Of a stretch of DNA of 64,000 nt, positions 42,733 through 51,507 are shown in pieces. Source of the DNA: Planctomycetota bacterium (lineage in GTDB: Bacteria; Planctomycetota; UBA1135; GCA-002686595). Numbering within the stretch: the first letter of the stretch is position 1; each line of letters begins with the position of its first letter. The translations under genes and the position numbers were made by a program. The stretch is taken from positions 1 through 64,000 of the forward strand of contig JASLMK010000046.1 in the NCBI GenBank assembly GCA_030746555.1. Reading direction: 5' to 3'. The notes beneath the pieces are model-generated. The model saw nothing but the letters and a program-made list of their open reading frames with translations, did no database searches and was not told where the DNA came from.

Positions 42733-47175
<4,443 letters not shown>

Positions 47176-47184
47176 GCCACCGTC

Positions 47185-47214
47185 GCCGCCCCGGTGAAGA
47201 GCCGGGTCGGCGGC
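47185..47214 (+). terminator. Hairpin after rpoC
   Basis: GCCGCC (47185-47190) pairs with GGCGGC (47209-47214), and the inner CCGG pairs with CCGG, with a small bulge. There is no T run, so termination here is uncertain. It lies just before the rpsL promoter. Confidence 0.3.
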
Positions 47215-47223
47215 CCCGGGTGC

Positions 47224-47252
47224 TTGACGGACGGTCCGTAGCTCCCCACAAT
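47224..47252 (+). promoter_or_regulatory. Promoter of the rpsL (str) cluster
   Basis: TTGACG (47224-47229), a 17-base spacer and CACAAT (47247-47252). The expected start near 47259 gives a leader of about 57 bases. Confidence 0.65.
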
Positions 47253-47315
47253 GCTGCCCCTTTTTCGGGCGGCGAACCCCTGCGAGGGGACCCTCGCTGA
47301 ACCAAGCCAGATTCC

Positions 47316-47690
47316 ATGCCGACCATCAACCAGCTGATCCGCAAGGGCCGCAAGAAGGCGACCAAGCGCTCGAAGTCCCCCGTCCTGGACTCGTGCCCGC
47401 AGAAGCGTGGCGTGTGCCTGCAGGTCAAGACCCAGACGCCCAAGAAGCCCAACTCAGCCCTGCGCAAGATCGCGCGTGTGCGCCTGTCCAACGGCAAGGA
47501 GATCACCGCCTACATCCCGGGCGAGGGCCACAACCTCCAGGAGCACTCGGTCGTGCTCGTGCGCGGCGGTCGGGTGCGTGACCTGCCCGGCGTCCGCTAC
47601 CACATCCTGCGCGGCACGCTCGATACGGGCGGCGTCGATGACCGCACCCAGAGCCGTTCCAAGTACGGAACCAAGCGTCCCAAGAAGTAG
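47316..47690 (+). CDS. rpsL: Small-subunit ribosomal protein uS12
   Basis: The 124-residue protein includes [11 protein letters not shown] with Lys43 intact and [12 protein letters not shown]. In that second motif residue 88 (codon 47577-47579, CGT) is Arg where most bacteria have Lys. Lys to Arg at this site is a known streptomycin-resistance substitution in E. coli and Mycobacterium. uS12 monitors codon-anticodon pairing in the decoding site. Confidence 0.97.
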
Positions 47691-47699
47691 CCCCGTTCC

Positions 47700-48173
47700 A
47701 TGCCGCGCAACTACAAGTCCACCGCCGTCTTCATCAAGCCCGATCCCCGCTTCGGGTCGCTGCTGGCGTCGAAGCTGATCAACAAGCTCATGCTCGACGG
47801 CAAGAAGAGCACGGCGCAGAAGATCTTCTACGACGCCCTGGATATCGCCGCCAAGAAGCTGACCGAGGTCGAGGAGATCGACGAGATCTTCACGAAGGCG
47901 ATCGAGAACGCACGCCCGACCGTGGAGGTGCGCTCCAAGCGCGTCGGTGGCGCGAACTACCAGGTTCCGCGCGAGGTGAAGCGCGGCCGCCAGCAGACCT
48001 TGGCGATCCGCTGGATCGTGGACAACGCCCGCAAGAAGAAGGGCAAGCCCATGGCCCAGCGGCTGGCGGAGGAGTTGGTCGATGCCTACAACGGCACCGG
48101 TGCGTCGGTGCACTGGAAAGAGAACATCCACAAGATGGCCGAGGCCAACAAGGCCTACGCCCACTACGCCTGA
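47700..48173 (+). CDS. rpsG: Small-subunit ribosomal protein uS7
   Basis: The 157-residue uS7 organises the head of the 30S subunit. GSLLASKLINKLMLDGKKS and GGANYQVPREVKRGRQQTLAIRW are typical. It starts 9 bases after rpsL and is followed by the tsr3 homologue where fusA would be expected. Confidence 0.96.
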   Translation: MPRNYKSTAVFIKPDPRFGSLLASKLINKLMLDGKKSTAQKIFYDALDIAAKKLTEVEEIDEIFTKAIENARPTVEVRSKRVGGANYQVPREVKRGRQQTLAIRWIVDNARKKKGKPMAQRLAEELVDAYNGTGASVHWKENIHKMAEANKAYAHYA

Positions 48174-48261
48174 TCCGACCGCGCGCCGGGGGCGGGGCAG
48201 CTGCCGCGCCATCGCGCGCGCCCCGCTCGCCTGCCGCCGGCCCGAAGAGAGCCGGAGCGCC

Positions 48262-48726
48262 ATGCGGACCGCCACGACCGATGTGTTGATCCTGCGCGAT
48301 CCGCGTGAGTCGGCGCGCAAGTGTTCCCTGACGCCCCTGCGCGGCAGGCCGGGGATCGAGTTCGTCTCCTACCACCGGGAGCGACGCATCGACGCATCCG
48401 GACGCATCCTGCTGCACCCCGATGGAGAGCCGCTGTCGACGGCCGACCGCGGCCGGGGGCTGCTCCTGGTGGACTGCTCCTGGCGCCGTCTCGAGAACCT
48501 GCTGGCCACGGTGGACGGCGACCCGCCCCGGCGCAGCCTGCCGGCACTCCACACCGCCTACCCACGCAGGAGCCGCACCTTCGAGGATCCGGCGCAGGGC
48601 CTGGCTTCCATCGAGGCCCTCTACGCTGCCCTGCACCGGTTGGGTGCGGACCCGGGGGACCTCTTGGAGGGCTATCGCTGGGCCGAGGCGTTCCTCGCGG
48701 CAAACCCGGGGCTTGCCGGGCGCTGA
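48262..48726 (+). CDS. Tsr3-like rRNA aminocarboxypropyltransferase (DUF367)
   Basis: The 154-residue product resembles the archaeal/eukaryotic Tsr3 family, which transfers an aminocarboxypropyl group from SAM to the helix 31 uridine of small-subunit rRNA. Supporting features are LSTADR (58-63, cf. LSPADR), VDCSW (70-74), RSLPAL followed by a small-residue loop (91-100), the SIEALYAALHRLG helix and the closing YRWAEAFLAANP (138-149). The family's AANPxNYG motif is only partly kept. It lies between rpsG and the EF-G gene, suggesting it is expressed with ribosome head proteins. Activity is inferred. Confidence 0.7.
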   Translation: MRTATTDVLILRDPRESARKCSLTPLRGRPGIEFVSYHRERRIDASGRILLHPDGEPLSTADRGRGLLLVDCSWRRLENLLATVDGDPPRRSLPALHTAYPRRSRTFEDPAQGLASIEALYAALHRLGADPGDLLEGYRWAEAFLAANPGLAGR

Positions 48727-48745
48727 TCGCCGAGCGCGGAGGCGC

Positions 48746-48751
48746 TACCCT
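48746..48751 (+). promoter_or_regulatory. Candidate -10 element before the EF-G gene
   Basis: TACCCT ends 9 bases before the ATG at 48761. Only a poor -35 is present. It would give a leaderless EF-G transcript in addition to read-through from rpsL. Confidence 0.25.
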
Positions 48752-48760
48752 CTGCCCACC

Positions 48761-50818
48761 ATGGGCCCCGACCGCATCCGCAACTTCGGCATCGCCGCCC
48801 ACATCGACGCCGGCAAGACGACCGTCTCCGAGCGCATGCTCTACTACAGCGGCGTCGAGCACCGCATCGGACAGGTCGACGAGGGCACGGCCGTCATGGA
48901 CTGGATGGCCGAGGAGCGTGAACGGGGGATCACCATCACCGCGGCGGCCACGCGCGTCCCCTGGCGCGACCACGCCCTCAACCTGATCGACACCCCCGGC
49001 CACGTCGACTTCACCGTGGAGGTCGAGCGCTGCATGCGCGTGCTCGACGGCGCCGTGCTCGTGCTGGACGCGGTGAGCGGCGTGCAGGCCCAGTCGGAGA
49101 CCGTCTGGCGGCAGATGGCCCATCACGGCGTCCCGGCGATCGCGTTCGTCAACAAGTGCGACCGCCCCGGCGCCGACTTCCTGGCGGCGGTCGCCACCCT
49201 CGAAGAGCGCCTGGGGGCGCCGGGCATTCCCATCCAGCTGCCCCTGGAGTCGACCGGGGACACGCACCTGATCGCCGACCTCGTCACCGGCCGCGCCCTG
49301 CGCTTCCACGCCGCCCGCGAAGGCCGGGACCCAGAGGTCGTCGATCCTCCCCCCGCGGCGGCCGACGAGATCGGCGTCCTGCGCTCCGATCTGATCGAGG
49401 CCCTCGCCGAAGGGAACGAGGCGCTGCTCGCCTGTGTGGTGGAGGAGCGCGAGCCCCCGATCGAACTGCTGGTGGCGGCTCTCAAGGAGCGCGTCCTCGC
49501 CCGCACCCTCGTGCCCGTGCTGTGCGGCGCGGCCCTGCGCAACTACGGCGTACAGCCCCTGCTCGACGCCGTCGTCGACTACCTGCCCTCGCCGCTGGAG
49601 GTCCCTGCGGTCGAGGGCGTGGATCCGAGCACGCTCGTGGCTCTCACGCGGGCACCAGAGGCCGACGAGCCCCTCGCCGCCTTGGCGTTCAAGCTCCACG
49701 CGGGGCCCCACGGGGACCTGACGTTCCTGCGCATCTACGCGGGCCGCCTGACTCCGGGCCAGGCCCTGATCAACCCGCGAGCCGGGAAGAAGGAGCGCGT
49801 TGCACGGATCCTGCGCATGCACTCCGAGAGCAGCGAGTCCCTCGAGAGGGCCGAGGCCGGCGACATCGTGGCGGTGACCGGACTGAAGTGGACTGGCACG
49901 GGCGACACCCTCTGCGTACGCGAGTCGCCGATTCTCCTGGAGGCCCTGGAGTTCCCCGAGCCGGTCATCACGCGGGTCGTGGAGCCGGCCAGCGGCGCCG
50001 AGCGCGATCGCCTGCGCCAGGCCCTGGAGCGCCTCTCCCACGAGGACCCCAGCCTGCACGTGCGCGAAGACGTGGACTCGGGACAGTGGACGATCGCGGG
50101 GATGGGGGAGTTGCACCTCGAGGTCGTCGCGCACCGCCTCGAGGCCGAGTTCGGTCTCGCCCCGCGGGTGGGCCAGCCGCGCGTGGCCTATCGCGAGACG
50201 GTCCAGAGCACCGCCGCCGGTAGGGGTGTCGTGGACCGCAGCCTGGCGGGCAAGGAGGTCTACGCTACCCTGGAGCTGGCCCTCTCGCCCGCGCACGACG
50301 GCCTCGCGCCCCGGGTGACGTTGGCCGGCGACTGTCTCCTGCCCGTGCCGGTCCGATCGGCCGTGGAGGAGGCCCTGGTGCTCGAAGCCCAGGTGGGGCC
50401 GCGCTTCGGCTTCCCCCTCGTGCGAGCGGCGATCGAGATCGGCGCGGTGGGCGTGCGCGATGGGAAGACCAGCGACGCTGCCTTCTGCCAGGCCGCCGTG
50501 GCCGCCCTGCGCCAGGCGATGGCAGCCGCGGACTGCGCCCTGGAGGAGCCGATGATGGCCTTCGAGATCCAGACCCCTGGGGAGTTCTCCAGCGGGATCA
50601 TCGCCGACTTGAACTCCCGGGACGCGGAGCTGACGGAGGTCGCCGCCGAGGAGGGAGCTTGCCGCATCGAGGGGCGGGTCCCCCTGGCGGCCATGTTCGG
50701 CTACTCGACCGCCGTCCGCTCCCTCTCCCAGGGCCGGGCGGGGTTCTCCATGTCCCCCTGCGGATACCGGCCCGTGGCGGAGCGCGACCTGGCCGCCCGC
50801 GGCCTCGTCTGGCGCTGA
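48761..50818 (+). CDS. fusA: Translation elongation factor G, EFG2-like
   Basis: The 685-residue GTPase has G1 AHIDAGKTT (13-21), switch I ERERGITIT, G3 DTPGH (77-81) and G4 NKCD (131-134), then domains II-V ending in GYSTAVRSLSQGRAGFSM. Domain IV differs from canonical EF-G: the HSGGRGQ(Y/F)GHV loop is replaced by DRSLAGKEVYATLEL, which recalls the DRTLGDKRHLVTVEV region of mitochondrial EF-G2 (ribosome recycling). This suggests a member of the spdEFG2-like branch known in planctomycetes and spirochaetes. If so, another EF-G elsewhere should do translocation. The symbol follows position, not proven function. Confidence 0.9.
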   Translation: MGPDRIRNFGIAAHIDAGKTTVSERMLYYSGVEHRIGQVDEGTAVMDWMAEERERGITITAAATRVPWRDHALNLIDTPGHVDFTVEVERCMRVLDGAVLVLDAVSGVQAQSETVWRQMAHHGVPAIAFVNKCDRPGADFLAAVATLEERLGAPGIPIQLPLESTGDTHLIADLVTGRALRFHAAREGRDPEVVDPPPAAADEIGVLRSDLIEALAEGNEALLACVVEEREPPIELLVAALKERVLARTLVPVLCGAALRNYGVQPLLDAVVDYLPSPLEVPAVEGVDPSTLVALTRAPEADEPLAALAFKLHAGPHGDLTFLRIYAGRLTPGQALINPRAGKKERVARILRMHSESSESLERAEAGDIVAVTGLKWTGTGDTLCVRESPILLEALEFPEPVITRVVEPASGAERDRLRQALERLSHEDPSLHVREDVDSGQWTIAGMGELHLEVVAHRLEAEFGLAPRVGQPRVAYRETVQSTAAGRGVVDRSLAGKEVYATLELALSPAHDGLAPRVTLAGDCLLPVPVRSAVEEALVLEAQVGPRFGFPLVRAAIEIGAVGVRDGKTSDAAFCQAAVAALRQAMAAADCALEEPMMAFEIQTPGEFSSGIIADLNSRDAELTEVAAEEGACRIEGRVPLAAMFGYSTAVRSLSQGRAGFSMSPCGYRPVAERDLAARGLVWR

Positions 50819-50960
50819 ACGGGGCGCCGGAGGGCTGCGGGGCCGCCCGAGAGGGGCGGGGAGGGGCCCGGGGGCGCCACCGGAACCCCACGCGGGCGGG
50901 CCACCTCCGGGCGCGGACGCGCCACGCGGCCCACAGAGACCAACTTGCCGGCCGTCGGTG
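50819..50960 (+). other. Spacer after the EF-G gene with GC-rich hairpins
   Basis: A hairpin pairs CCGCCC (50843-50848) with GGGCGG (50854-50859), framed by two GGGGCGCC boxes (50821-50828 and 50871-50878) that could form an outer stem. There is no T run. It may end transcription of the str cluster. No gene is seen. Confidence 0.35.
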
Positions 50961-50989
50961 TTGACGCTACCGCCTCCAGGACCTATTTT
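50961..50989 (+). promoter_or_regulatory. Promoter of the S10-spc-alpha ribosomal cluster
   Basis: TTGACG (50961-50966), a 17-base spacer and TATTTT (50984-50989), in an otherwise GC-rich region. The predicted start near 50996 leaves a leader of about 205 bases with several GC-rich stems. Leader-based feedback regulation by a ribosomal protein (uL4 in E. coli) is possible but not shown. Confidence 0.75.
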
Positions 50990-51201
50990 ACTCGGCCCTC
51001 CAGGGTCTCCCGGCGGCCGCGACGGCCGGCGGGCCCGGCTGCTGAGGGGCGCTCCCTCCGGCTTCCCAGCGCCGGAGCGGCACCGATCAACGAGGCGCAC
51101 ATCCCCGCGGCGCCGACCACAGGCAACCCGACCATGACTCCGCTCCCGAACGCGCTCGGGGGAGGGACCCGGCGGGTACGCCGACCCGACACAGTGACCC
51201 G

Positions 51202-51507
51202 ATGAAGGACAAGATTCAGATCCGAATGGAGGCCTACGACCACGAGGCCCTCGACCAGTCCTGTGTCGACATCGTCGACACGGCCAAGAGGACCGGTGCG
51301 CGCGTGGCCGGCCCCATCCCTCTGCCCACCCGGGTGGAGCGCTACACCGTCCTTCGCTCCCCGTTCATCGACAAGAAGTCCCGGGAGCAGTTCGAGATCC
51401 GCACCCACAAGCGGATCATCTACATCTCCGAGCCCACGAGTCAGACCGTGGACTCTCTCTCCAGCCTGAACATGCCCGCCGGCGTGGACATCCGCATCAA
51501 GGCCTGA
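51202..51507 (+). CDS. rpsJ: Small-subunit ribosomal protein uS10
   Basis: The 101-residue uS10 includes [20 protein letters not shown] and [12 protein letters not shown], all typical. It opens the S10 cluster about 205 bases after its promoter. uS10 also serves as NusE, the antitermination partner of NusB. Confidence 0.96.

What the first reader, a model, noticed from the sequence alone, without database searches (positions are those of the whole stretch)
48262..48726. Archaeal/eukaryotic-type Tsr3 homologue inside a bacterial str cluster
The gene between rpsG and the EF-G gene encodes a DUF367/Tsr3-like protein (LSTADR, VDCSW, final W-x3-F-x3-NP). Tsr3 adds the acp group to the helix 31 hypermodified uridine of small-subunit rRNA in archaea and eukaryotes. 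In well-studied bacteria the matching positions (966/967) carry RsmD/RsmB methylations. Linkage to rpsG and a translational GTPase suggests that this lineage has an acp or other SAM-derived modification in the 30S head near the P site. Family membership is from visible motifs; target and chemistry are inferred.
Basis: partly seen in the sequence, partly recalled or inferred. Interest (0 to 1): 0.8.

Follow-up and report, generated by a model that had tools for sequence, protein, structure and literature searches.

The report
Bacterial Tsr3-like RNA enzyme beside rpsG
The window carries a small planctomycete gene related to the Tsr3 enzyme that decorates ribosomal RNA in archaea and eukaryotes, but the RNA letter Tsr3 modifies is absent here, so the bacterial enzyme probably acts on some other, still unknown, target.

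Summary
Window 48262-48726 (+) encodes a 154-aa protein that matches PF04034 above cut-off, and archaeal Tsr3 by sequence and predicted fold. The conserved TDD-superfamily residues are present. Its place between rpsG and an EF-G gene is old: EF-G follows within 160 nt in 29 of 31 same-order genomes, in 0 of 30 loci from other orders.

Helix 31 is not the target in the Tsr3 sense: 16S position 966 is G, not U, in this genome and in all 34 gene-bearing and 84 gene-lacking planctomycete 16S sequences aligned. RsmD-type and RsmB/F-type genes are present. It scores far below Tsr3 equivalog cut-offs.

Best reading: a bacterial TDD protein, probably of the pc1599 family described in 2014 (PMC4275035; [quoted passage not shown] Chemistry and target are untested. 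It occurs independently of DTW/TapT.

Side finding: the neighbouring EF-G is the more divergent of two full-length EF-Gs in this genome.

The parts
48262..48726 (+). TDD-family protein (Tsr3-like), 154 aa; conserved residues E16, K20-C21-S22, D71-C-S-W74, Y100-P-R102, E118
47316..47690 (+). rpsL (30S S12), syntenic upstream gene
47700..48173 (+). rpsG (30S S7), syntenic upstream gene, 88 nt before the TDD gene
48761..50818 (+). EF-G gene 34 nt downstream; the more divergent of two full-length EF-Gs in this genome (Arg where the other EF-G has the domain-IV tip His)

Best explanation
The gene encodes a stand-alone TDD-fold (SPOUT-like) enzyme of a bacterial Tsr3-like family. It most likely binds S-adenosylmethionine in the Tsr3 manner, with Trp74 shaping the SAM pocket and Asp71 as general base, and transfers the 3-amino-3-carboxypropyl (acp) group to a uridine in a structured RNA. 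Helix-31 position 966 is not that uridine, because it is G here. Given the conserved place between rpsG and an EF-G gene, a uridine elsewhere in rRNA is about as likely as one in tRNA (about 0.35 each; the tRNA case is also listed as a rival). Shown here: gene, fold match, conserved residues, order-wide synteny, G966, presence of RsmD-type and RsmB/F-type genes. Inferred: SAM binding, acp chemistry, RNA as substrate. Unknown: the target nucleotide.
For: PF04034 above cut-off. AlphaFold model pLDDT 90.9; best PDB matches are the two Tsr3 structures (5apg Foldseek 2.7e-8; VIA Z 14.0, rmsd 3.1, 142 aligned; 5ap8 Z 11.7), then E. coli TapT (Z 9.8), then other SPOUT rows (Z 8.0 and below). In 60 aligned planctomycete proteins E16, C21, D71, W74, E118 are invariant; these match the TDD core features of PMC4275035 (acidic residue after strand 1, DsoW, Glu of the penultimate helix) and the D/E-x-S/T-W motif of acp transferases (PMC7026641, passages). 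Synteny: EF-G within 160 nt downstream in 29 of 31 same-order genomes with PF04034 loci; in the 80 best genome-contig loci EF-G lies within 1.5 kb downstream in 65 and S7 within 1.5 kb upstream in 63. Gene found in 41 of 41 sampled genomes of the order. G966 in 34 of 34 gene-bearing 16S; E. coli numbering checked.
Against: I found no experiment on this family in the papers searched. The fold is shared by methyltransferases (Trm10, TrmL, RsmE rows at Z about 6-7), so other SAM chemistry is possible. The residue aligned with SAM-contacting A76 of V. distributa Tsr3 is Leu77 here, by my reading. The loop TAYPRxSK differs from the two Tsr3 PDB chains. My scan of 16S columns for a uridine that tracks the gene gave no convincing candidate. 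Outside the order there is no ribosomal linkage in the fetched flanks (0 of 30 loci).
Confidence: 0.7

Rival explanations
1. One reading: a true Tsr3 that makes an acp-modified uridine in 16S helix 31 (position 966).
For: Family match and ribosomal-operon location.
Against: Position 966 is G in this genome and in 34 of 34 gene-bearing planctomycete 16S sequences aligned, and in 84 of 84 gene-lacking ones. RsmD-type and RsmB/F-type genes present. Below the Tsr3 equivalog cut-offs.
Confidence: 0.03
2. A tRNA acp transferase (the tRNA half of the best explanation, so its odds overlap with it): it makes acp3U in tRNA, like E. coli TapT/YfiP, without TapT's N-terminal zinc module.
For: Own genome has no DTW (PF03942) match (assembly 91% complete). 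The bacterial acp enzyme in the papers read, TapT, acts on tRNA U47 (PMC7026641, passages). TapT structures are the next best fold match (Z 9.8).
Against: Presence of the gene is independent of DTW presence: 21 of 96 gene-bearing and 55 of 296 gene-lacking genomes have a DTW match of their own, Fisher p 0.46; within the order 7 of 41 genomes have both. The ribosomal operon place points elsewhere. No zinc module.
Confidence: 0.36
3. A SPOUT-type RNA or protein methyltransferase, or another SAM-using enzyme, that kept the fold but not the acp chemistry. A protein substrate such as the neighbouring EF-G, S7 or S12 is conceivable (the SPOUT-like SFM1 is titled an arginine methyltransferase).
For: SPOUT methyltransferases share the fold. 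The operon partner is a translation factor.
Against: D-x-S/T-W, central to acp transfer in Tsr3 (PMC7026641 passages), is kept: D71 and W74 invariant in 60 of 60. The nearest folds are acp transferases.
Confidence: 0.1
4. An RNase for rRNA or tRNA processing, as Burroughs and Aravind proposed for the superfamily in 2014.
For: Conserved acidic residues (PMC4275035).
Against: Later work reports Tsr3 and TapT as acp transferases (PMC7026641 and PMC6895100, passages).
Confidence: 0.03

Closest known systems
pc1599 family of the TDD superfamily (Burroughs and Aravind 2014, PMC4275035)
   Same: Bacterial, mainly planctomycetes-verrucomicrobia-chlamydiae, found by searches from archaeal TSR3, same conserved core
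   Different: In the passages and sections I read there is no str-cluster linkage of this bacterial family and no helix-31 argument; I could not compare with the pc1599 sequence itself
Archaeal Tsr3 (PDB 5apg, 5ap8)
   Same: Fold, D-x-S/T-W motif, C-S/T near the N-terminus (5ap8 alignment), single core domain, closest solved structures
   Different: Its rRNA target, a U at 16S position 966, does not exist here; far below equivalog cut-offs; TAYPRxSK loop not in the two Tsr3 chains
TapT/YfiP (DTW domain, acp3U47 in tRNA; PDB 9kz5, 9kyt)
   Same: Same superfamily and motif; fold Z 9.8
   Different: No N-terminal zinc module, no PF03942 match, 13% identity in the structural alignment

Membership tests
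TDD superfamily (Tsr3/DTWD1/DTWD2) | D-small-S/T-W motif between strand 3 and helix 2 | tested here: met
   D71-C-S-W74; D and W invariant in 60 of 60 rows
TDD superfamily (Tsr3/DTWD1/DTWD2) | Acidic residue after strand 1 and Glu at the start of the penultimate helix | tested here: met
   E16 and E118 invariant; features as listed in PMC4275035 section 6
TDD superfamily (Tsr3/DTWD1/DTWD2) | Tsr3-type SPOUT-like fold | tested here: met
   Model pLDDT 90.9; 5apg Z 14.0, rmsd 3.1, 142 aligned; 5ap8 Z 11.7
Archaeal/eukaryotic Tsr3 (18S/16S rRNA acp transferase) | Pfam PF04034 over gathering cut-off | tested here: met
   35.7 bits, cut-off 29.9
Archaeal/eukaryotic Tsr3 (18S/16S rRNA acp transferase) | NCBIfam Tsr3/DUF367 equivalog cut-offs | tested here: not met
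   NF002621 44.3 of 152 bits; NF053630 36.7 of 300 bits
Archaeal/eukaryotic Tsr3 (18S/16S rRNA acp transferase) | Target uridine at 16S position 966 (helix 31) | tested here: not met
   G in own 16S and in 34 of 34 gene-bearing 16S aligned; numbering checked on an E. coli 16S
Archaeal/eukaryotic Tsr3 (18S/16S rRNA acp transferase) | acp transfer from SAM to rRNA | not testable with these tools
   Needs enzyme assay or mass spectrometry
DTW/TapT (tRNA acp transferase) | PF03942 match | tested here: not met
   Pfam scan with E up to 1 lists only PF04034. Some distant planctomycete family members do match PF03942 weakly, one (G389) just over its cut-off, 34 against 33.7 bits
DTW/TapT (tRNA acp transferase) | N-terminal basic zinc module with C-x2-C-x6-C-x-C | tested here: not met
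   The 154 aa hold 2 cysteines, C21 and C72; motif as given in PMC7026641 passages
pc1599 family | Clusters with Protochlamydia pc1599 | not tested
   Sequence not in hand; assignment rests on taxonomic range and the description in PMC4275035

The most novel reading that the evidence does not exclude
An acp modification in bacterial rRNA at a site other than helix 31, made by a str-operon enzyme that is kept beside a duplicated, divergent EF-G in this planctomycete clade. It would be a new target class for the Tsr3 fold.
Probability: 0.35. Interest if true: 0.65.

Novelty: new member of a known kind. Interest (0 to 1): 0.42.

Why it matters
It turns a family match into a sharp question. A bacterial Tsr3 relative is present in all 41 sampled genomes of one planctomycete order and mostly sits in the rpsL-rpsG-EF-G cluster (29 of 31), yet the rRNA uridine that defines Tsr3 function is missing. 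So the protein should have a different target. If they can be grown, mass spectrometry of their RNA would test it.

Tried and rejected
Helix-31 target: rejected.

Replacement of TapT: PF03942 over the same 392 genomes showed no exclusion (21/75/55/241, p 0.46). For that table I dropped 20 of the 96 DTW genomes, whose only DTW match was weak (E 9e-8 to 2e-4) and lay on the TDD gene itself, and counted 96 rather than 105 TDD genomes because 9 (G066, G085, G115, G135, G146, G149, G179, G233, G369) had only weak partial matches (E 2.5e-7 to 2.6e-4). Those 9 count as gene-lacking. The test takes no account of kinship.

Search for a 16S uridine that tracks the gene: 34 gene-bearing against 84 gene-lacking sequences. 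The columns with the largest differences are not U throughout the gene-bearing set. Two columns are U in all gene-bearing rows: 34 of 34 against 81% of 83, and 31 of 31 against 87% of 83. Not convincing and not corrected for kinship. 23S rRNA and tRNA were not tested. Of 175 genomes with a 16S match, 36 bear the gene and 34 were used (G001 and G198 not fetched); of 139 without it, 84 were used.

Rfam RF00177 over 41 genomes found 16S in only 6, so I used a BLAST of an own 16S stretch instead.

Neighbourhoods outside the order: read by eye from ORFs of 18 loci, one of them from the order. In one f67 and one f54 locus the gene follows what looks like ispG; nothing general.

EF-G subfamily: the KDG insert given for spdEFG1 (PMC3150367 passages) is in neither own EF-G within the first 90 residues, so I do not name the subfamilies.

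Literature: (search listings only, open-access library; one search listed 20 of 48 papers and one search listed 8 of 23) showed me no experimental paper on the planctomycete protein. 'pc1599' occurs in 4 papers; by title the other three are clinical papers. The Tsr3 structure paper (10.1093/nar/gkw244, PMC4872110) is not held; what I say of it comes from passages of PMC7026641 and PMC6895100.

Full report
What is there. It matches Pfam PF04034 above the curated cut-off, and the PDB entry 5apg, Tsr3 of Vulcanisaeta distributa. It is the one PF04034 match in its genome, a 4.0-Mb assembly of 137 contigs, 91% complete; of 14 control genomes only the 4 archaea match. Upstream lie rpoC, rpsL and rpsG; downstream an EF-G gene, then rpsJ- and rplC-like genes (ORFs; rpsL, rpsG and EF-G confirmed by NCBIfam; rpoC, rpsJ and rplC named by eye). 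The gaps are 88 nt to rpsG and 34 nt to EF-G, and the only terminator-like site found in 47100-51300 is on the other strand. The nearest homologues show dN well below dS.

Family. A PF04034 search of 392 genomes of the phylum hit 61, 33 of them over the cut-off. I extracted the protein from all 61 and aligned 60 rows, the window protein included, leaving out one with unread bases. Invariant residues include E16, C21, D71, W74, Y100-P101-R102, G113-L114-A115 and E118. With this alignment as profile, 105 of 392 genomes match; 9 of these have only weak partial matches, leaving 96. In the window's order all 41 genomes sampled match, 22 of 22 in its family and 19 of 19 in other families; in two (G309, G317) the match is in pieces. 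A scan of genome contigs confirmed 296 relatives, of which the best 80 were kept; 75 are titled as planctomycetes or as bacteria without a named group, four as Verrucomicrobia/Opitutia/Opitutales and one as Deltaproteobacteria. Named relatives in the str-linked clade include strains Pla86 and Pla163 and the assembly UBA1135; strain Poly30 is in that clade but its copy lacks these neighbours.

Structure. AlphaFold2 on the 60-row alignment gives pLDDT 90.9 and pTM 0.87. Foldseek's only matches below 0.001 are four chains of the two Tsr3 structures. VIA-align ranks 5apg first (Z 14.0, rmsd 3.1, 142 aligned, 33% identity), then 5ap8 (11.7), then E. coli TapT (9.8), then other SPOUT-type proteins from 8.0 down. 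A profile comparison with ten planctomycete DTW proteins gives 89% probability over 146 columns, in line with a common superfamily.

Known family. Burroughs and Aravind (PMC4275035; passages and sections 6 and 7 read) joined TSR3, DTWD1 and DTWD2 into the TDD superfamily. They described a bacterial family, pc1599, mainly in the planctomycetes-verrucomicrobia-chlamydiae group, and recovered a Planctomyces brasiliensis protein from an archaeal TSR3 query. They favoured an RNase role. Later papers (PMC7026641 and PMC6895100, passages) report that Tsr3 and E. coli YfiP/TapT transfer the acp group of SAM to uridine or a uridine derivative, with D/E-x-S/T-W as key motif. Our protein has that motif. 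That it is a pc1599 member is my inference; it was not tested against pc1599 itself.

Why not helix 31. The own 16S (contig 20) reads AAGCAAC from 964 to 970; an E. coli 16S fixes position 966 as G in this motif. Across planctomycetes, 966 is G in 34 of 34 sequences from gene-bearing genomes (26 in the order, 8 outside) and 84 of 84 from gene-lacking genomes. An RsmD-type gene and an RsmB/F-type gene are present; EMG1/Nep1 and DTW/TapT are not found. The absences rest on a 91% complete assembly.

Synteny. Of 31 same-order genomes with a PF04034 locus, 29 have EF-G starting within 160 nt downstream; the exceptions are L062 (2.5 kb) and L080 (none found). None of 30 loci from other orders has S7, S12 or EF-G in the fetched flank, at most 1.5 kb for 10 of them (5 of these read again with about 3 kb) and 3 kb for 20; some contigs end sooner. 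Among the 80 best genome-contig loci, 65 have EF-G and 63 have S7 within 1.5 kb, both in 57; some contigs end too soon to tell. On a tree of 116 proteins the str label needs 6 changes against 33 for shuffled labels, and 77 of 83 rows of one starred clade carry it; rows with cut-off flanks may be labelled wrongly. This fits one early gain with later losses; I did not test that against other histories.

The neighbouring EF-G. The genome holds a second full-length EF-G on contig 42 that scores higher (912 against 690 bits). The two are 41% identical. At the domain-IV tip the contig-42 copy has KAHEVDSS, with His where the window copy has Arg; in 64 EF-G rows from the genome-contig loci that column is Arg in 21, His in 8 and other letters or a gap in 35, in a loosely aligned loop. 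So 'the EF-G gene' of the finding is the more divergent paralogue. Planctomycetes are known to carry split EF-G pairs (PMC3150367, PMC4342817, passages). I could not assign the subfamilies.

How it likely works. SAM is bound in a pocket shaped by Trp74, and Asp71 deprotonates a uridine, which takes the acp group. This is transferred from what PMC7026641 says of Tsr3 and YfiP, not shown here. The target is open. Gene order favours rRNA; the lack of a DTW match in this genome leaves tRNA possible; co-occurrence with DTW elsewhere speaks against simple replacement.

Verdict. A real, conserved gene of a bacterial family probably already described in outline, with an interesting operon place and a clear negative on the proposed target. 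Moderate interest.

Noticed in passing
window 48761-50818 and G000 contig 42, 54565-56595: Two full-length EF-G paralogues; the str-cluster copy is the more divergent one and has Arg where the other has the domain-IV tip His.
   Followed up: partly
   Followed up: no
L100 (f67) and L078 (f54): The TDD gene lies directly downstream of a gene that looks like ispG, by eye, in both loci, instead of ribosomal genes.
   Followed up: no
L167: A record titled Deltaproteobacteria carries a copy that falls in the planctomycete clade without the str neighbours; transfer or a mis-binned contig.
   Followed up: no
L039 540-2720: The own rRNA region holds a full-length 16S and, by eye, tRNA-like stretches before the start of 23S, on a contig other than the window's.
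   Followed up: no
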